DNA from: Enterobacter sp. RHBSTW-00994
GTDB lineage: Bacteria; Pseudomonadota; Gammaproteobacteria; Enterobacterales; Enterobacteriaceae
NCBI RefSeq assembly: GCF_013782625.1
Contig: NZ_CP056199.1
Location: 700,588-764,587 of the forward strand
DNA length: 64,000 nucleotides
Reading direction: 5' to 3'
The position numbers were made by a program, and so were the translations under genes. A model generated the notes under the pieces. The model was not told where the DNA came from. It did no database searches and saw nothing but the letters and a program-made list of their open reading frames with translations. Within the stretch, counting starts at the first letter, position 1, and each line of letters begins with the position of its first letter. This document shows positions 10,622-44,158 of this stretch, piece after piece.

Positions 10622-11213
<592 letters not shown>

Positions 11214-12152
11214 ATGAAGCTGATACGCGGCATACATAATCTCAGTAACGCCCCTCATGGGTGCGTGCTGACTATTGGTAATTTCGACGGCGTGCATCGT
11301 GGGCATCAGGCGCTGTTGCAGGGATTGCGTAAAGAGGGGCAGGCCCGTGGTCTGCCCGTCGTAGTAATGATATTCGAGCCACAGCCGCTGGAGCTGTTTG
11401 CGGGCGATAAATCGCCCGCACGCCTGACTCGCCTGCGTGAGAAATTGCGCTATCTGGCGGAGTGCGGTGTGGACTACGTACTCTGTGTACGTTTCGACCG
11501 TCGCTTTGCCGCGCTGACAGCACAAAATTTTGTTGGCGACCTGTTGGTCAAGCAGCTTGGCGTGCAGTTTCTCGCTGTGGGCGATGATTTCCGCTTTGGC
11601 GCTGGTCGTCAGGGCGATTTCTTGTTATTACAGAAGGCTGGTCTGGAGTACGGTTTTGACGTCACCAGTGCGATGACGTTCTGTGAAGGCGGCGTTCGTG
11701 TCAGCAGCACGGCGGTTCGCCAGGCGCTGGCAGATGATGAACTGGAAACGGCAGAAAATCTGCTGGGGCATCCATTCACCATTTCAGGCCGTGTAGTACA
11801 CGGTGATGCGCTGGGCCGTACGATAGGTTTCCCGACGGCGAATATACCGCTACGTCGTCAGGTATCCCCGGTTAAAGGGGTCTATGCGGTAGAAGTGACC
11901 GGACTGGGCGATACGCCATTCTTCGGTGTCGCCAATATTGGCACACGTCCAACCATTGCCGGTGTGCGACAGCAGCTGGAAGTCCATCTGCTGGATGTTG
12001 TAATGGACCTCTATGGTCGCCATATAGATGTAATCCTGCGTAAAAAAATACGCAATGAGCAGCGATTTGGTTCGCTGGATGAACTTAAAGCACAAATCGC
12101 GCGAGATGAATTAACCGCCCGCGAGTTTTTTGGGCTATCAAACCCGGCTTAA
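11214..12152 (+). CDS. ribF: Bifunctional riboflavin kinase/FAD synthetase
   Basis: 312 residues. The N-terminal nucleotidyltransferase half has [20 protein letters not shown] and ISSTAVRQ-like [10 protein letters not shown], the adenylyl-transfer motifs. The C-terminal flavokinase half has [13 protein letters not shown] and [10 protein letters not shown]. It converts riboflavin to FMN and then FAD in the cytoplasm. It heads the ribF-ileS-lspA-fkpB-ispH operon; ileS starts 34 bases after its stop. Confidence 0.97.
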
Positions 12153-12186
12153 ATGCCTACGTGATAAATACGGAACCGAGAATCTG

Positions 12187-15003
12187 ATGAGTGACTATAA
12201 ATCAACCCTGAATTTGCCGGAAACAGGGTTCCCGATGCGCGGCGATCTCGCCAAGCGCGAACCGGGAATGCTGGCGCGTTGGACCGATGATGACCTGTAC
12301 GGCATCATTCGTGCAGCCAAAAAAGGCAAAAAAACCTTCATTCTGCATGATGGCCCTCCATATGCGAATGGCAGCATTCATATTGGTCACTCTGTAAACA
12401 AGATTCTGAAAGACATTATCGTGAAGTCCAAAGGACTCACGGGTTTTGACTCGCCTTATGTTCCAGGCTGGGACTGCCACGGTCTGCCAATTGAGCTGAA
12501 AGTGGAGCAGGAATTCGGCAAGCCGGGTGAGAAATTCACCGCAGCGGAATTCCGCGCAAAATGCCGCGAATACGCTGCAAACCAGGTTGATGGTCAGCGT
12601 AAAGACTTTATCCGTCTTGGCGTACTGGGCGACTGGTCACATCCGTACCTGACCATGGACTTCAAAACCGAAGCCAACATCATCCGTGCGCTGGGCAAAA
12701 TCATCGGTAACGGCCACCTGCACAAAGGCGCGAAGCCAGTGCACTGGTGTGTAGATTGCCGTTCTGCACTGGCAGAAGCGGAAGTTGAGTATTACGACAA
12801 AACGTCACCATCCATTGATGTGGCTTTCCAGGCCGTTGACCAGGATGCCGTAAAAGCCAAATTTGGCGTGTCATCTGTAAACGGCCCAATCTCTCTGGTT
12901 ATCTGGACGACCACTCCGTGGACACTGCCAGCAAACCGAGCGATCTCCCTGTCTGGTGAATTTGAATATGCGCTGGTACAGGTTGAAGGTCAGGCGGTTA
13001 TCCTGGCGAAAGATCTGGTCGAAAGCGTACTGAAGCGCGCACATATCAGCGAATACAGCATTCTGGGTACTGTGAATGGCGCTGAGCTGGAGCTGATGCG
13101 CTTCAAACACCCGTTCCTGGACTTCGATGTCCCGGCAATCCTGGGTGACCACGTTACGCTGGAAGCCGGTACGGGCGCAGTCCATACCGCAGGCGGTCAC
13201 GGTCCTGACGACTACAATATCAGCCTGAAATACGGTCTGGAAATCGCCAACCCGGTTGGTCCTGACGGCTCTTACCTGCCAGGAACATACCCGTCTCTGG
13301 ATGGCATTAACGTCTTCAAAGCAAACGACATCATCGTCGACATGCTGCGTACCAGTGGCGCGTTGCTGCACGTTGAGAAGATGCAACACAGCTATCCGTG
13401 CTGCTGGCGTCACAAGTCGCCAATCATCTTCCGTGCAACGCCGCAGTGGTTCGTAAGCATGGATCAGAAAGGCCTGCGCGAGCAGTCTCTGAAAGAGATC
13501 AAAGGCGTACAGTGGATCCCGGACTGGGGCCAGGCGCGTATCGAATCCATGGTGGCAAACCGTCCTGACTGGTGTATCTCCCGTCAGCGTACCTGGGGTG
13601 TGCCGATGTCTCTGTTTGTCCACAAAGAGACACAGGAGTTGCATCCGCGTACCCTGGAATTGATGGAAGAAGTGGCGAAGCGCGTTGAAGTTGACGGCAT
13701 TCAGGCATGGTGGGATCTCGACTCCCGCGACATCCTGGGTGCAGATGCGGATAACTACGAGAAAGTGCCAGATACCCTGGACGTATGGTTCGATTCAGGA
13801 TCAACCCACTCCTCAGTGGTTGATGTGCGTCCGGAGTTTAGCGGCCATGCGGCAGATATGTATCTGGAAGGTTCTGACCAACACCGTGGCTGGTTTATGT
13901 CATCTCTGATGATCTCTACCGCGATGAAGGGCAAAGCGCCATATCGCCAGGTACTGACTCACGGTTTCACCGTGGATGGTCAGGGCCGTAAAATGTCCAA
14001 GTCCATCGGTAACACCGTCTCTCCTCAGGATGTGATGAACAAACTCGGCGCGGATATCCTGCGTCTGTGGGTGGCATCGACTGACTATACCGGCGAAATG
14101 GCCGTGTCGGATGAGATCCTGAAACGTGCTGCCGACAGTTATCGTCGTATCCGTAACACCGCGCGCTTCTTGCTGGCAAACCTGAATGGGTTTGACCCAG
14201 TAAAAGACATGGTACAGCCGGAAGAGATGGTGGTGCTGGATCGCTGGGCTGTAGGCTGCGCGAAAGCGGCTCAGGACGATATCCTGAAAGCCTATGAATC
14301 TTACGATTTCCACGAAGTGGTACAGCGCCTGATGCGCTTCTGCTCCATTGAGATGGGCTCGTTCTACCTCGATATCATCAAAGACCGCCAGTACACCGCG
14401 AAAGCGGACAGCGTAGCCCGTCGTAGCTGCCAGACTGCGCTGTTCCACATTGCAGAAGCACTGGTACGCTGGATGGCGCCTATCATGTCCTTCACTGCGG
14501 ATGAAATCTGGGGCTACTTGCCAGGCGATCGTGAGAAATATGTCTTCACGGGCGAATGGTACGAAGGTCTGTTTGATCTCTCTGGCACTGAAACCATGAA
14601 CGATGCATTCTGGGATGAGCTGCTGAAAGTTCGTGGTGAAGTGAATAAGGTCATCGAGCAGGCTCGTGCTGACAAGAAAGTCGGCGGCTCTCTGGAAGCG
14701 GCAGTGACGCTGTATGCAGAACCTGAGCTGGCGACGAAACTGACAGCGCTGGGTGATGAATTACGATTTGTCCTGTTGACCTCTGGTGCAAAAGTTGCGG
14801 ATTATGCCGACGCTTCTGCAGATGCACAGCAGAGCGAGTTGCTCAAAGGGCTGAAAATTGCTCTGAGCAAAGCCGACGGTGAGAAATGCCCGCGTTGCTG
14901 GCATTACACAACGGATGTCGGTCAGGTGGCGGAACACGCAGAAATCTGCGGACGCTGTGTGAGCAACGTCGCCGGAGACGGCGAGAAACGTAAGTTTGCC
15001 TGA
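12187..15003 (+). CDS. ileS: Isoleucyl-tRNA synthetase
   Basis: 938 residues from the ATG at 12187 ([20 protein letters not shown]), exactly the E. coli length; an upstream in-frame ATG at 12130 lies inside ribF and is not conserved. Class I motifs are [17 protein letters not shown] (HIGH) and [10 protein letters not shown] (KMSKS). The CP1 editing domain has [16 protein letters not shown] and [14 protein letters not shown]. coli has Pro in place of the first Gly (HTAPGHG). The C-terminal zinc site shows CPRCWHY and CGRCVSN. It charges tRNA-Ile and edits Val. Its stop overlaps the lspA start by one base (TGATG). Confidence 0.98.
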
Positions 15004-38802: not shown

Positions 38803-39621
38803 ATGCAGTATTGGGGTAAAATAATCGGTGTTGCGTTCGCATTAATGATGGGCGCTGGGTTCTGGGGAATCGTGCTGGGCCTCATTATTGGCCATATGTT
38901 TGACAAGGCGCGCAGCCGTAAAATGGCCTGGTTTGCCAACCAGCGCGAGCGTCAGTCGCTCTTTTTTGCCACCACGTTTGAAGTGATGGGGCATCTCACT
39001 AAATCGAAAGGGCGTGTGACAGAAGCTGATATCCAGATTGCCAGCGTCTTCATGGATCGTATGAATCTGCACGGGGAGTCTCGTGTAGCGGCGCAAAATG
39101 CGTTTCGCATTGGTAAAGCGGACAATTATCCACTGCGTGAAAAAATGCGTCAGTTCCGCAGCATCTGCTTTGGCCGTTTTGATTTAATTCGGATGTTTCT
39201 GGAGATCCAAATCCAGGCGGCATTCGCTGATGGCTCCCTGCACCCTAATGAGCGTGATGTTTTATATGTGATCGCCGAAGAGCTGGGTATCTCCCGCATG
39301 CAGTTCGATCAGTTCCTGCGCATGATGCAGGGGGGCGCGCAGTTTGGTGGCGGGTATCAGCAACAGCAGTCTTCTGGTGGTGGCTGGCAGCAGGCGCAGC
39401 GTGGCCCAACGCTGGAAGATGCCTGCAATGTGCTGGGCGTGAAGCCAACAGACGAGGCAACGACGATCAAACGAGCCTACCGTAAGCTGATGAGCGAGCA
39501 CCATCCGGACAAACTGGTGGCGAAAGGCTTGCCGCCAGAGATGATGGAAATGGCGAAGCAGAAAGCTCAGGAAATTCAGAAAGCCTACGAGTTGATAAAA
39601 GAGCAGAAAGGTTTTAGATAA
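38803..39621 (+). CDS. djlA: Membrane-anchored DnaJ-like co-chaperone DjlA
   Basis: 272 residues. One N-terminal transmembrane segment (about 6-30, glycine-rich), a TerB-like central domain, a Gln/Gly linker ([20 protein letters not shown]) and a C-terminal J domain with HPD in [12 protein letters not shown]. It stimulates DnaK and in E. coli affects capsule (Rcs) signalling. A terminator follows directly. Confidence 0.97.
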
Positions 39622-39623
39622 GC

Positions 39624-39651
39624 AGGGCCGCGTAAGCGGCCCTTTGTTTTT
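39624..39651 (+). terminator. Terminator after djlA
   Basis: AGGGCCGC, loop GTAA, GCGGCCCT, then TTGTTTTTG, starting three bases after the djlA stop. On the opposite strand no U run follows, so it is a poor terminator for the autotransporter gene. Confidence 0.85.
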
Positions 39652-39656
39652 GTGAT

Positions 39657-42600
39657 TTAGCGGAACGACACGTTCACACCCGTATTGAATTGCCAGCCGT
39701 CAATACCTGCCTCGCCCAGGCGGGTTTGGTAGCCACCGTTAGCAAAGAGCGTAATGTTTTCAGCAGCTTTTCCATTTATCCCCAGATTGAAACTGGCATA
39801 GCTACCTGGGGTGGCGGCGCTAAAGTCGGCGCTTTGATCCGCATTGTTCCCGGAGATCGTCACGCCAGGATTATTATTTTCATCCCAGTTCACCTGTGAA
39901 CCGGCTGTGAACTCCAGCGCATCAGTAAGATGATAGCGATAACCAAGACCGACGTGATAGAGCGGACGGACGATACTGTCGTAAGACGTGTGCGTATTAT
40001 CAACGTCGTCGATATCATCAATATCAAGGTACTGTACTCCCACCCCTATCGCTGGAGTGACAACATGTTTGCCAAAGGTGAGATCTTTCCCCACGTTCAG
40101 ATCGGCGGTCAGACCTTTCGCTTTCACTTTAGCAATACTTTCACCGCGCAGCGTGGTGCTGATATCACCACTGTATTTAGATACGTCCAGCAGTAGTTCA
40201 CCGAACCAGCCGGAAGCATGACGCCATTCGGTCAGTGTGCTCAATGTATGTGCCGTGTAATCCCCTTGGCTTTCTCCATCCTGCGCATGTGGTGTGACGC
40301 TAATCTCAGCCGTTGACCATGCGACGTTAAGGGACAGGTGCTGTGACTCATCAGGACTTTGCCAGTGTGCTGCACGCCCACCAAACAGGAAGCCGTTTGC
40401 CTTTTGATCGAAATCGTAACCAAACTGGCTGAAGCTCAGGTTGCTGTTATAGCGATCATCCTGATGGAAGTATTCCATAAAGATGCCCAGATTTTCTTTC
40501 TCCGACCGCATAGCTTGCTGGTGAAGTGTGCTTCGCAGGGAATTGTTGTAGTTCAGTAGCGCCGTCGGCAGTGACAGATAGGACGGTACTTGTGGGATAA
40601 CGGCACGACGAACGTTGTCTGCGGGCTGTTCTGGATCTGAAGGGAGATCCTCCGGCGGTGTTACATCAGGCAGTTCATCGTCAGCTGGTGTGTCTGGCTC
40701 GTCAACGACCTCTTCGGCTGGGATGGTGTTTTCCCCTTCAAAAAGAAGATCGTTTTGCAGACGGTAGTCCCAATATCGCTTGCCGGAGGTGAGATTATCA
40801 CCTGCATCGCTTTTCCCTGGTGCGAAGGCATAAAGTGAATAGCGCCATGCCCCCATCGCAACATAACCACCGCTGAGCTTAACGCTTTCCTTACTGACAC
40901 TGCCGTTTACCTGCACCAGCGAGACACCTTCTTGCGCATCGGCTTTACCATTGTTGTTGGTATCGGTATTCAGGGTTTCTCCCGAAAGTGAGAGATTGAG
41001 CCACAGCGGTTCATTTCCGCTGATATCGCCATTGATCACCAGACGGTCGGAAAGGCTGCTGGCTGTACCGAGCTGTGTGCGCAGAACCGCCTGACTATTG
41101 CTGCCAGTGGTCAGCGTACCGTTAATGTTCAGGGTTTCTGGTTCGAACACGCTAGCTTTCAGTAAGATTTCGGGTGTTTCGCGCTGCCAGCCGGGATAAA
41201 TCACCGCGTTGTTGCCAAGCGTGATATCGGCCGTGGTTCCAGAGCCACTTAACAGTGTCCCACTGCCCATCGTGAGTGAAGAGGAGAGACGACCATTTAG
41301 TGCCAGTTGCCCTGCATTGATTGTTGTACCTCCCGTCCAATCGCCATTACCCGTGAACCACAGGATTCCGTTTCCCTCTTTCACCAGTTTGCCGTCTCCG
41401 CCGATGTCAGCGGTAATTTCAACGTCATTAAAGCCATCGGTGCTTTGATCCAGTGAACTGTCTTGAATAACGCGCAATGTGGCATTTTCGGCAAGTAAGG
41501 CTGAACCGCTGAATTTACTCCGGCTTTGCAGTATCAGTTCTGCGTTGTCGCTTATATTCACATTGCTGCTCAAGTCGCCATGCTCACCCACCATCAGGGA
41601 CGTATTACTGCTAACGGTTGTGGTCGTGACAGCAAAGGTGCTATCAATCCAGTCGTTGCTAAACACGATATTATTAGCATGCGGGGTTGGACGCCCGCGC
41701 AGGATCAGATTGCCGTTAGTGAGGGACAACGTATTGACTGCGACATTACCCGCCAGCGTTCGCGTTTTGCTTTCCTCAGTGGATACGACAATATCAAGAT
41801 TCCTCTGGCTCTCAGCAGCACCGATTTCACCAATAAACAACCGGTCTTTGTCAGAAGAGAGCGTGAGCGTAGAGCGTTGCTGGTTATTATTGTTGAGAAG
41901 GGTAGCACCGTTATCGTTGTGTTTGATTTCGTCAAAGGTCATATCGTAACCGTTGAGATCAATATTACCGCCACGGAAGCCAAACTGGACGTTATCAGCC
42001 GTGATTTGACCTTCGCCCGCCAGTTGTACGGTAGGGCGGCCACTTACCAGCGTGATAGTTGAAAAGGCCTGACGTTGACCCTTCTCATCGACACGTTGTG
42101 CTAATACAACAGTACCATCACCGACATTTAGCGCACCGCCGTTGATACCTTCTGCGTTAACATAAAGTGTACCCGCGCCGATTTTATGAAGTGTATCGCC
42201 AGCCAGACCATTAACCTGCCAGTTGACGGTTTTATCCGCATCGACTTCTACACCACCACCGACCCAGGTATAGTTTTGTCCTTCAGCAGGTTTGACGATG
42301 TAGTCATTTGAAAACTGGAGCTTAGCCGCACCATGATTGACGGATTGCTCAAGAACGATTGTCCCCCCGTCACCATTAAAACGGAGATCTTTGGTGGCAT
42401 CTAGCTCAGCATTTGTTGACTGGGAAGGTAATTCTTTGTTCGCAACTCCATGCCATTGCCAGTTTGCGGCACCTTGAGAAATATTATCACTGCGCCATAT
42501 TATGCTGCCGTTCTCAGCGCTGTCCGTTACATCGGGATCGGTGTTTTTAGCTAATACACTCTGATAAAAATCGTTACGGAAATAAAGATTGTAACTATTG

Positions 42601-43382
42601 ACGGAATAAGGGGTACTCCCACTTATCCATGGAGATACTCCAATCAGTTTCCATATTTTATCCTGATTGTCGTAAACGAAAACAGGGCTTCCACTGTCTC
42701 CTGATTGCACCGCTGAACTAAAAGGGAGTGCTTGTGGATTAGGCGGACCGTAGTTTACCCAACGTAACCGGTAAGCATTTTCGAATACCGGGTTTGTAAA
42801 CATACCACCAGTAACCCAGTTATAGGCACCCGTTAATGTTGTGACATTATTTGTCCCTGGAACAACCTGCTTCTGTGTGCCAGAACCGACTCGCGTATAC
42901 CATGTATAACGTGATTTCTCTTTTAAAGCACTGCTGTCTTTAAGAATTGGCGTCGGAGCGCTTTCTGTCACCACTTTATTAAGTCGTGGTACGTGAAAGT
43001 CTATATTATATTCAGGAACGACAGGGTGATTATTACGGTTAATCAGGACATATTTCGTCTTGAATTTTGCATTGTTCCCGAAATCAACAGAAGTATAACC
43101 CCCATTATGCTTTACGCTGGTGATATAAGATGGGCCGACCAGCGTCGCGATACCCAGACTATCTGATACGCTAAAATCAGGCACTGGAAAATCGAGTGTC
43201 CCTGCAACAGTTCCATCCGTTTTATACACCACGATCCCTGTCGTGCCAGGGCTGTACTTCCCTTTGTTTTCAGCAAAATCTCTGTAATCCTGCACGGAAA
43301 CGTCTTCACGCATCACACTTGCGTTAGCATCACAAAGCGCAAAAGAGATAAAACTGGCAAGCAGTTTTTTTTCCCATTTCAT
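39657..43382 (-). CDS. Serine-protease autotransporter with SPATE-like passenger
   Basis: 1241 residues, type V secretion. A short signal peptide (about 22 residues, ending in DANA) lacks the long ESPR extension of classical SPATEs. The S6 protease domain follows: His92 in SVKHNGGYTSVDFGN, Asp128 in NIDFHVPRLNK, Ser230 in QSGDSGSPVFVYD, a full catalytic triad. The passenger continues as a beta helix; VNWQVNGLAGDTLHKIGAGT and FSTITLVSGRPTVQL closely resemble the Pet/Pic/EspP group. At about 880-925 lies an acidic Pro-rich linker (EEVVDEPDTPADDELPD), and from about 960 an autotransporter barrel ending in GVNVSFR. The SPATE linker/cleavage motif EVNNLNKRMGDLRD is absent, so the translocator is of another type and self-release is uncertain. 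Likely a secreted or surface protease; substrate unknown. It is inserted between djlA and rluA, with an AT-rich upstream region. Confidence 0.93.
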   Translation of the reverse strand: MKWEKKLLASFISFALCDANASVMREDVSVQDYRDFAENKGKYSPGTTGIVVYKTDGTVAGTLDFPVPDFSVSDSLGIATLVGPSYITSVKHNGGYTSVDFGNNAKFKTKYVLINRNNHPVVPEYNIDFHVPRLNKVVTESAPTPILKDSSALKEKSRYTWYTRVGSGTQKQVVPGTNNVTTLTGAYNWVTGGMFTNPVFENAYRLRWVNYGPPNPQALPFSSAVQSGDSGSPVFVYDNQDKIWKLIGVSPWISGSTPYSVNSYNLYFRNDFYQSVLAKNTDPDVTDSAENGSIIWRSDNISQGAANWQWHGVANKELPSQSTNAELDATKDLRFNGDGGTIVLEQSVNHGAAKLQFSNDYIVKPAEGQNYTWVGGGVEVDADKTVNWQVNGLAGDTLHKIGAGTLYVNAEGINGGALNVGDGTVVLAQRVDEKGQRQAFSTITLVSGRPTVQLAGEGQITADNVQFGFRGGNIDLNGYDMTFDEIKHNDNGATLLNNNNQQRSTLTLSSDKDRLFIGEIGAAESQRNLDIVVSTEESKTRTLAGNVAVNTLSLTNGNLILRGRPTPHANNIVFSNDWIDSTFAVTTTTVSSNTSLMVGEHGDLSSNVNISDNAELILQSRSKFSGSALLAENATLRVIQDSSLDQSTDGFNDVEITADIGGDGKLVKEGNGILWFTGNGDWTGGTTINAGQLALNGRLSSSLTMGSGTLLSGSGTTADITLGNNAVIYPGWQRETPEILLKASVFEPETLNINGTLTTGSNSQAVLRTQLGTASSLSDRLVINGDISGNEPLWLNLSLSGETLNTDTNNNGKADAQEGVSLVQVNGSVSKESVKLSGGYVAMGAWRYSLYAFAPGKSDAGDNLTSGKRYWDYRLQNDLLFEGENTIPAEEVVDEPDTPADDELPDVTPPEDLPSDPEQPADNVRRAVIPQVPSYLSLPTALLNYNNSLRSTLHQQAMRSEKENLGIFMEYFHQDDRYNSNLSFSQFGYDFDQKANGFLFGGRAAHWQSPDESQHLSLNVAWSTAEISVTPHAQDGESQGDYTAHTLSTLTEWRHASGWFGELLLDVSKYSGDISTTLRGESIAKVKAKGLTADLNVGKDLTFGKHVVTPAIGVGVQYLDIDDIDDVDNTHTSYDSIVRPLYHVGLGYRYHLTDALEFTAGSQVNWDENNNPGVTISGNNADQSADFSAATPGSYASFNLGINGKAAENITLFANGGYQTRLGEAGIDGWQFNTGVNVSFR

Positions 43383-43389
43383 TAATCAG

Positions 43390-43409
43390 CCCCTTACAAA
43401 AATAAGGGG
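43390..43409 (-). promoter_or_regulatory. Hairpin occluding the autotransporter ribosome-binding site
   Basis: On the mRNA strand CCCCTTA, a 6-nt loop and TAAGGGG form a perfect 7-bp stem. The 3' arm AAGGGG is the Shine-Dalgarno sequence, seven bases before the ATG at 43382, so the fold would hide it. Upstream the DNA to 43498 is AT-rich and carries the promoter and the rluA end. Confidence 0.6.
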
Positions 43410-43498
43410 GGGATTATATTTTTATCCGATTTCTGGCGGTTTGGTTTTTATTAATTTGTGAATTTTGTTTATCTTAATATATACAACTCAGTTATATT

Positions 43499-44158
43499 TT
43501 AGAAATCCACCGGAGCTTTAAACGTCATCGCATTACCGAAAATCGGATGGGTAATGGTCAGTATTTGCGCATGCAGTTGTAACCGCGGCGCTAATGCCAG
43601 CGCTTCTGGTGGCGCGTAGAATCGGTCTCCCAGAATCGGATGGCCGATGGCAAGCATATGGACACGAAGCTGATGCGAGCGCCCGGTAATCGGTTTAAGC
43701 AGTATGCGCGCAGTATTGTCGGGCGCGTACTCCAGCACTTCATACTCGGTTTGCGCTGCTTTGCCGGTTTCGTAGCAGACCTTTTGCTTTGGCCTGTTCG
43801 GCCAGTCGCAAATCAGCGGTAAATCTACCAGACCTTCTGCTTTTTCCGGGTGACCCCAGACGCGCGCCACATACTGTTTTTTCGGCTCACGTTCGCGAAA
43901 CTGCCGCTTGAGTTCACGCTCAGCCTCTTTATTCAGAGCCACCACAATCACGCCGCTGGTTGCCATATCAAGGCGATGGACAGACTCAGCCTGCGGATGA
44001 TCGCGCTGAATGCGCGTCATCACGCTGTCTTTGTGCTCTTCAAGACGCCCAGGGACGGATAACAGGCCACTCGGCTTGTTGACCACCATAATGTGTTCAT
44101 CCTGATACAGGATGACCAGCCAGGGCTCCATCGGGGGATTGTAGGGCTCCATTACCAT
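43499..44158 (-). CDS. rluA: Dual-specificity pseudouridine synthase RluA
   Basis: 219 residues as in E. coli. The catalytic Asp64 lies in SVHRLDMATSGV, with KPSGLLSVPGR before and LKPITGRSHQLRVHM after. It makes pseudouridine 746 in 23S rRNA and 32 in several tRNAs. rapA ends 12 bases upstream on the same strand, so the two are probably cotranscribed. Confidence 0.98.
   Translation of the reverse strand: MVMEPYNPPMEPWLVILYQDEHIMVVNKPSGLLSVPGRLEEHKDSVMTRIQRDHPQAESVHRLDMATSGVIVVALNKEAERELKRQFREREPKKQYVARVWGHPEKAEGLVDLPLICDWPNRPKQKVCYETGKAAQTEYEVLEYAPDNTARILLKPITGRSHQLRVHMLAIGHPILGDRFYAPPEALALAPRLQLHAQILTITHPIFGNAMTFKAPVDF

What the first reader, a model, noticed from the sequence alone, without database searches (positions are those of the whole stretch)
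39657..43382. Hybrid autotransporter: SPATE-like protease passenger on a non-SPATE translocator
The passenger has the S6 triad (His92, Asp128, Ser230) and blocks close to Pet/Pic/EspP, but the signal peptide is short with no ESPR, the SPATE EVNNLNKRMGDLRD cleavage helix is missing, and an acidic Pro-rich linker joins it to a different barrel. This mix suggests domain shuffling and perhaps a surface-held rather than released protease. It sits in a core gap, djlA-rluA.
Basis: partly seen in the sequence, partly recalled or inferred. Interest (0 to 1): 0.7.

Follow-up and report, generated by a model that had tools for sequence, protein, structure and literature searches.

The report
Surface protease with swapped export barrel
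This bacterial gene encodes a predicted surface protease whose cutting part resembles known gut-bacterium proteases but sits on an unrelated export barrel, and its relatives look like products of repeated part-swapping near one conserved spot.

Summary
ORF 39657-43382 (-), 1241 aa, is an autotransporter with an S6 protease head (H92, D128, S230), a short signal peptide, no SPATE cleavage motif, an acidic Pro-rich linker and a non-SPATE barrel. It fills the djlA-rluA gap, which is 34-57 bp in 28 of 28 other Enterobacter loci where both genes could be read. Domain shuffling is supported, with corrections. (1) It is not a one-off: 21 other sequences share the architecture (Rahnella, Tatumella, Pantoea, Erwinia, Hafnia and others). 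(2) Fifteen relatives have the same kind of head without this barrel; the 14 with a readable end have, as a group, a SPATE-related barrel. The window's barrel matches adhesin-like and sialidase autotransporters. (3) The exchange was not at the linker. In residues 24-400 the two classes interleave (one clade rejected, p 8e-5); in residues 435-600 each is one clade (100/99). Three of four mosaic lineages break inside residues 386-428, the most conserved stretch. (4) The window's own lineage shows no clear break; a third-position GC change near residue 443 is only a hint. Surface retention is plausible and unproven. Best filed as a new variant of a known kind: a mosaic SPATE-like S6 autotransporter family.

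The parts
39657..43382 (-). S6 protease autotransporter ORF, 1241 aa
43317..43382 (-). short signal peptide, residues about 1-22; no room for an ESPR (in-frame TGA two codons upstream)
   Evidence: cleavage position inferred by eye
42615..43322 (-). Peptidase_S6 domain, residues 21-256 (H92 at 43107-43109, D128 at 42999-43001, S230 at 42693-42695)
42099..42227 (-). most conserved beta-helix stretch, residues 386-428; three of four mosaic lineages break inside it (relatives, not the window gene itself)
41529..41798 (-). PIC/HAP1/IgA0 second beta-solenoid, residues 529-618; similarity to the other class fades to background from about residue 600
40833..41138 (-). type-1 autochaperone (AC_1), residues 749-850
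40611..40742 (-). acidic Pro-rich linker, residues about 881-924; 31-272 aa across the 22 same-architecture rows
39660..40610 (-). translocator, residues 925-1241: conserved block with VPSYLSLP plus non-SPATE barrel
43383..43498 (-). AT-rich upstream region between rluA and the autotransporter; inverted repeat over the Shine-Dalgarno
   Evidence: z -1.66, 12 of 200 shuffles as good; not significant
39624..39643 (+). terminator-like hairpin just after djlA, differing from the hairpin of the nine empty sites printed
   Evidence: the scan found 4 such sites, 4.7 expected by chance
38803..39621 (+). djlA, flanking core gene
43499..44158 (-). rluA, flanking core gene, same strand and upstream

Best explanation
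A type Va autotransporter protease from an uncharacterised SPATE-like S6 family of Enterobacterales in which protease heads and translocators are mixed and matched. Inferred mechanism: a short Sec signal exports the protein; the C-terminal barrel inserts in the outer membrane; the passenger threads out, with the AC_1 region helping the beta-helix to fold; and the S6 head is displayed at the far end. The SPATE release site is missing and a length-variable acidic Pro-rich spacer joins passenger to barrel, so the protease is probably held at the surface or freed only by other proteolysis. The family evolved by exchanging heads (residues up to about 400), mostly at a conserved beta-helix stretch, on top of an older joining of an S6 head to a translocator of the adhesin/sialidase type. 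In this Enterobacter it probably arrived as a single-gene insertion in the djlA-rluA gap. Shown by sequence: architecture, family, discordant trees, breakpoints in relatives, empty site. Inferred: display, retention, proteolysis of external proteins.
For: Full-length family. Head tree of 60 rows: 37 rows (22 with this barrel, 15 of the other class) form one clade (SH-aLRT 99), apart from SPATE rows and small-genome S6 rows. In the careful 42-row tree the 22 are not one clade (AU p 0.0004) nor are the 15 (p 0.004). Residues 24-400: one clade rejected, p 8e-5; residues 435-600: each class one side of a branch, 100/99. Stem-plus-barrel tree: head group A1 rejected as a clade, p 0.007. Barrel profiles: this barrel versus seven outside autotransporters E 1.9e-52, versus the other class 2.2e-6; the other class versus SPATE rows 5e-33. 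Breakpoints with leave-one-out controls. Cleavage motif absent, ESPR-like pattern absent. Empty site in 28 of 28 readable loci. Similarity limited to the gene between L033 and L052.
Against: The window's own clade of 8 rows is the same in head and stem-plus-barrel trees and its own breakpoint test finds nothing inside (gain 2.1 at the scan edge), so this gene is not shown to be a recent hybrid. In one search head group A2 is not rejected (p 0.50), and the split between this class and the outside rows has only 49/32, so a single origin of this translocator class is not shown. E. asburiae breaks elsewhere (298-313). The junction (mostly 60-78% protein identity) need not be where the DNA crossed. 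Groups A1, A2 and the tested lineages were named after seeing the head tree; long branches meet among the outside rows. No data on retention or activity exist.
Confidence: 0.72

Rival explanations
1. One old family with stable architecture; apparent tree conflicts reflect fast evolution and misplacement, not exchange.
For: 21 other full-length relatives; the window's own eight-row clade is the same in both trees; head group A2 is not rejected by stem and barrel (p 0.50).
Against: One clade rejected for heads (p 8e-5) against 100/99 support for residues 435-600; interior breakpoints in four lineages, none in 22 leave-one-out controls.
Confidence: 0.15
2. The passenger is released, by the S6 head cutting linkers (as I recall for Hap and IgA proteases) or by another protease, so it works as a secreted enzyme.
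For: Head related to Hap and IgA1 protease; long linker.
Against: Linker length and sequence are not conserved (31-272 aa); the conserved block after it, [VI]PSY, also stands in outside autotransporters without an S6 head, so it is not a protease site of this head.
Confidence: 0.35
3. A divergent true SPATE that merely lost its long signal and cleavage motif.
For: Head similar to class-2 SPATEs.
Against: Barrel profile matches SPATE rows only weakly (E 2e-5 over 171 columns) against 1.9e-52 to outside autotransporters; heads form their own clade.
Confidence: 0.05
4. The gene is ancestral to djlA-rluA in Enterobacterales and was lost from most lineages, rather than inserted later.
For: Same site and orientation in Rahnella victoriana and genome G227.
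Against: Only 2 of 60 genomes of the genus have a match at E 1e-20 or better, one of them without this barrel; the gene lies elsewhere in G100 although 81% identical to the R. victoriana copy.
Confidence: 0.3

Closest known systems
Class-2 SPATEs (Hbp/Tsh, Pic, SepA, EatA; class as in PMC9289746, passages seen)
   Same: S6 head and first part of the beta-helix, about residues 23-509 (to 574 for Hbp)
   Different: no long signal, no EVNNLN site, unrelated barrel
SPATE-like autotransporters (SLATs: Hap, App, MspA, IgA1 proteases; PMC9289746, passages seen)
   Same: S6 head with similarity to Hap and IgA1 protease; short signal (theirs recalled)
   Different: heads in a separate clade from the small-genome S6 rows that I take to be Hap/IgA-like; barrels weakly alike (E 3e-10, still closer than to the sister class at 2e-6)
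BNR-sialidase autotransporters, like NanB of Pasteurella multocida (named in PMC9289746; its own sequence was not compared)
   Same: same translocator type in L145, L147, L148; [VI]PSY block in all three, WDYRLQN in L147
   Different: sialidase domains instead of an S6 head
Autotransporter 'mix-and-match' in PMC3419190 (Celik et al., author name recalled; passages seen) and SPATE beta-domain fusion in PMC3153244 (Dautin 2010; one section and passages seen)
   Same: passenger type and barrel type not tied together
   Different: here a within-family series with two barrel types, a mapped junction and tests

Membership tests
SPATE (criteria in PMC3153244 section 1.2, read) | very conserved beta-domain, 277 residues, 60-99% identical | tested here: not met
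   barrel finds no solved chain at E up to 10; profile match to SPATE rows only 2e-5
SPATE | GDSGS serine protease motif in the passenger (residues 250-270 in SPATEs) | tested here: met
   motif at 228-232, earlier in number because the signal is shorter
SPATE | cleavage at FxxEVNNLNK in the linker | tested here: not met
   no pattern match near the barrel in 37 rows (L075 is cut by its contig end, so 36 could show it); no invariant Asn in the linker region of 21 rows
SPATE | signal sequence longer than 49 residues | tested here: not met
   (upstream stop); ESPR-like pattern (recalled) in 0 of 36 relatives (L035 uninformative, interrupted) and 4 of 5 SPATE rows
SPATE | abundantly secreted | not testable with these tools
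   no experiment
MEROPS S6 / Pfam Peptidase_S6 | domain match and His-Asp-Ser triad | tested here: met
Type Va autotransporter | signal, passenger, autochaperone, C-terminal barrel | tested here: met
SLAT group (Hap, App, IgA1 protease) | passenger clusters with Hap/IgA1 protease | tested here: inconclusive
   own clade; Hap and IgA1 protease themselves were not in the tree, and kinship to the small-genome S6 rows is unresolved

The most novel reading that the evidence does not exclude
S6 heads are exchangeable cassettes: a conserved beta-helix stretch (residues about 386-428) acts as a recombination joint that lets bacteria change the protease while keeping stem, tether and barrel, across two unrelated translocator classes. 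The window gene itself carries a recently acquired head, hinted at by the third-position GC change near residue 443.
Probability: 0.3. Interest if true: 0.62.

Novelty: new variant of a known kind. Interest (0 to 1): 0.47.

Why it matters
SPATEs are usually studied as released proteases of E. coli and Shigella. Here the same kind of head occurs in other Enterobacterales (many of them plant-, insect- or water-associated, as I recall) without the SPATE release site and on two different barrels. That makes a natural experiment on whether the barrel must match its passenger, and on how new autotransporters arise.

Tried and rejected
Single-protein scan of named genomes found no relative; the alignment scan worked. 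DNA search in E. coli genomes: no match. Solved structures for the barrel alone: none at E up to 10. The RBS hairpin was considered as a control element and dropped: z -1.66, and by eye it is not upstream of the L052 copy. Rfam: no match at gathering scores in 39400-43700. The idea that the swap is at the Pro-rich linker was rejected. EaaA/EaaC was considered as nearest named relative and dropped: the SPATE review says its beta-domain is over 90% identical to Pet's (passages).

What was left out of counts: the head tree used 60 rows after removing identical heads, hits under 100 bits and hits covering under 400 head residues; L082 fell out for short coverage, and L086 and L088 gave no ORF in the list. 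L075, counted in the other class, is cut by its contig end, so its barrel was not seen; its class rests on residues 435-600. L035 is an interrupted copy of which only the larger piece was used. Only L145, L147, L148 and L051 of the seven outside autotransporters were scanned with Pfam; L146, L149 and L150 are called non-S6 because the head search gave no match or a weak partial one outside the protease domain. Breakpoint controls covered 8 of 8 W rows, 8 of 8 A2 rows and 6 of 13 B2 rows. Genome searches were samples: 60 genomes of the genus, 295 of the family, 345 of the order; loci were returned for 30 of the 60. Group f9 is called Pasteurellaceae only by inference from genome size and kinship. 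That no paper on this family was found rests on the listings, in an open-licence library.
Full report
The gene. ORF 39657-43382 (-) encodes 1241 aa. Pfam finds Peptidase_S6 (21-256), the PIC/HAP1/IgA0 second beta-solenoid (529-618) and AC_1 (749-850), and no PF03797 barrel; TIGR01414 covers 749-1240. The triad H92, D128, S230 is present. Nearest solved passengers are Hbp, Pic, SepA and EatA, over about residues 23-509 (to 574 for Hbp), then Hap and IgA1 protease. The barrel alone finds no solved chain. The signal is short and cannot be longer, since a stop lies two codons upstream.

The host and the site. G000 is taken to be Enterobacter because a genome of the same genus, G050, has a contig of 664,890 bases, the length of the contig titled Enterobacter asburiae TN152. 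Of 60 genomes of the genus, 2 have a match at E up to 1e-20: the window's own and G050, and G050 lacks this barrel. rluA was found in 60 of 60 and loci were returned for 30: the own one, one at a contig edge without djlA, and 28 with both genes, 28 of 28 with a gap of 34-57 bp (the values 55-57 come from djlA alignments that stop seven residues early). Nine empty sites that were printed show a hairpin between the two genes. In the window the gap is 3,877 bp, with a different terminator-like hairpin after djlA. The same site is occupied in Rahnella victoriana (L052) and in G227 (L035), 2 of the 57 loci L032-L088, some of which are the same genomes twice. In G100 a copy 81% identical to that of R. 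victoriana lies elsewhere, and similarity ends 63 bp before the start codon and at the stop codon, which points to movement of the single gene.

The family. A family-level search gave matches, to head or barrel, in 31 of 295 genomes. A named-genome scan gave 37 loci. Fifteen have the same kind of head (46-57% identical to the window's) and no detectable match to the barrel (class B: Erwinia psidii, E. endophytica, E. mallotivora, Pantoea species, E. asburiae, E. ludwigii by title, Intestinirhabdus, one unnamed); one of these, L075, is cut by its contig end. Where positions can be read, class B has roughly 75 further residues between head and solenoid that class A lacks.

The barrels. By profile comparison class A matches seven outside autotransporters (L051, L145-L150) at E 1.9e-52 after the broken relative L046 was removed, small-genome S6 rows at 3e-10, class B at 2.2e-6 and SPATE rows at 2e-5. 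Class B matches SPATE rows at 5e-33 and small-genome S6 rows at 1e-11. Three of the outside proteins, L145, L147 and L148, have BNR sialidase domains, and L051 has an autotransporter barrel with AC_1 and no S6 domain. L145, L147-L150 and L051, the six printed, share an [VI]PSY block after the linker.

Discordant trees. With 60 rows, heads of A and B form one clade (99) apart from SPATE rows and most small-genome S6 rows; L050 and L140 stand just outside it. In a careful tree of 42 rows, neither A (p 0.0004) nor B (p 0.004) is one clade. Cut finer, residues 24-400 reject A as a clade (p 8e-5), while residues 435-600 put A and B on the two sides of a branch with 100/99. Within A, Tatumella and Hafnia/Erwinia 198 have heads near the window's but stems and barrels with the Pantoea/Mixta set (98/98; head group A1 rejected, p 0.007; head group A2 not rejected, p 0.50). 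In that tree long branches meet among the outside rows, and the split between class A and the outside rows has only 49/32, so a single origin of this translocator class is not shown.

Breakpoints. Sliding identity shows A-B similarity falling to background from about residue 600 and is highest near residues 370-430. Best breaks, with the score over no break: Tatumella 397 (395-403; 99 against 27), Hafnia/Erwinia 419 (386-428; 96 against 30), E. psidii 428 (427-428; 179 against 3), E. asburiae 305 (298-313; 119 against 16). In 22 leave-one-out controls (8 W, 8 A2, 6 of 13 B2) the best break lies near an edge of the scan (44-51 or 568-577) and gains at most 6.2 over no break (L054; the window row gains 2.1). 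So at protein level the window row is not a mosaic. Its third-position GC changes from 37% to 52% at residue 443 (413-494), 0 of 200 permutations as strong. Its drop from 430-600 back to 300-430 (17.6 points) is the largest of 37 rows, but by a wider pair of segments it is second (15.3 against 15.5 in L059), several rows have stronger changes at other places, and L063, L073, L075 and L144 also change near 411-458. Low GC at the 5' end is common in the family. This is a hint only.

How it probably works. Export by a short Sec signal, barrel insertion, outward threading and AC_1-aided folding follow from general knowledge of type Va secretion. Retention is inferred from three facts: no EVNNLN-type pattern near the barrel in 37 rows, of which 36 could show it (among 5 SPATE rows 2 match the pattern and L049 has a variant); no invariant Asn in the linker region of 21 rows, which the SPATE reaction described in PMC3153244 (passages) needs; and a spacer of 31-272 aa, in L039 made of 29 copies of a 27-base unit. 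The 6 class B rows printed also have acidic or Pro-rich linkers without that motif, so loss of SPATE release seems to go with the head family and not with the barrel.

Known or new. PMC3419190 (passages) already states that passenger and barrel types mix, and PMC3153244 (one section and passages) argues the same for SPATE beta-domains. PMC9289746 (passages) groups SPATEs with SPATE-like autotransporters. I saw no paper on this family in the listings of six searches. It fails three tested SPATE criteria (barrel, cleavage site, signal) and meets one (protease motif), so it is not filed as a SPATE. It is a new variant of a known kind.

Noticed in passing
43383-43415 (-): Inverted repeat CCCCTTA/TAAGGGG with a run of seven C covers the Shine-Dalgarno of the autotransporter; folding z -1.66, not significant, and by eye not present upstream of the Rahnella victoriana copy.
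   Followed up: partly
39657-39665: The window protein ends FR, with one Arg after the terminal aromatic residue; the other 10 rows of alignment A1 end in F or Y.
   Followed up: no
L035, about 11000-12400: The G227 copy at djlA-rluA is interrupted: its first 85 codons lie apart from the rest, with what looks like an insertion sequence between. Described only.
   Followed up: partly
L046 (Winslowiella toletana plasmid, by same length and place as hit H3): A broken relative: residues 459-512 and 498-1240 in different frames, head not found.
   Followed up: no
L039:9949-10732: Linker made of 29 copies of a 27-base unit (DDGGSTPPP type), a likely length-variable spacer.
   Followed up: partly
L145, L147, L148: Sialidase (BNR) autotransporters from small-genome relatives share the window's translocator type.
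   Followed up: partly
L081:2740-11702: Achromobacter dolens carries two adjacent SPATE-type S6 autotransporters outside Enterobacterales; one has an ESPR-like start, the other the SPATE cleavage motif.
   Followed up: no
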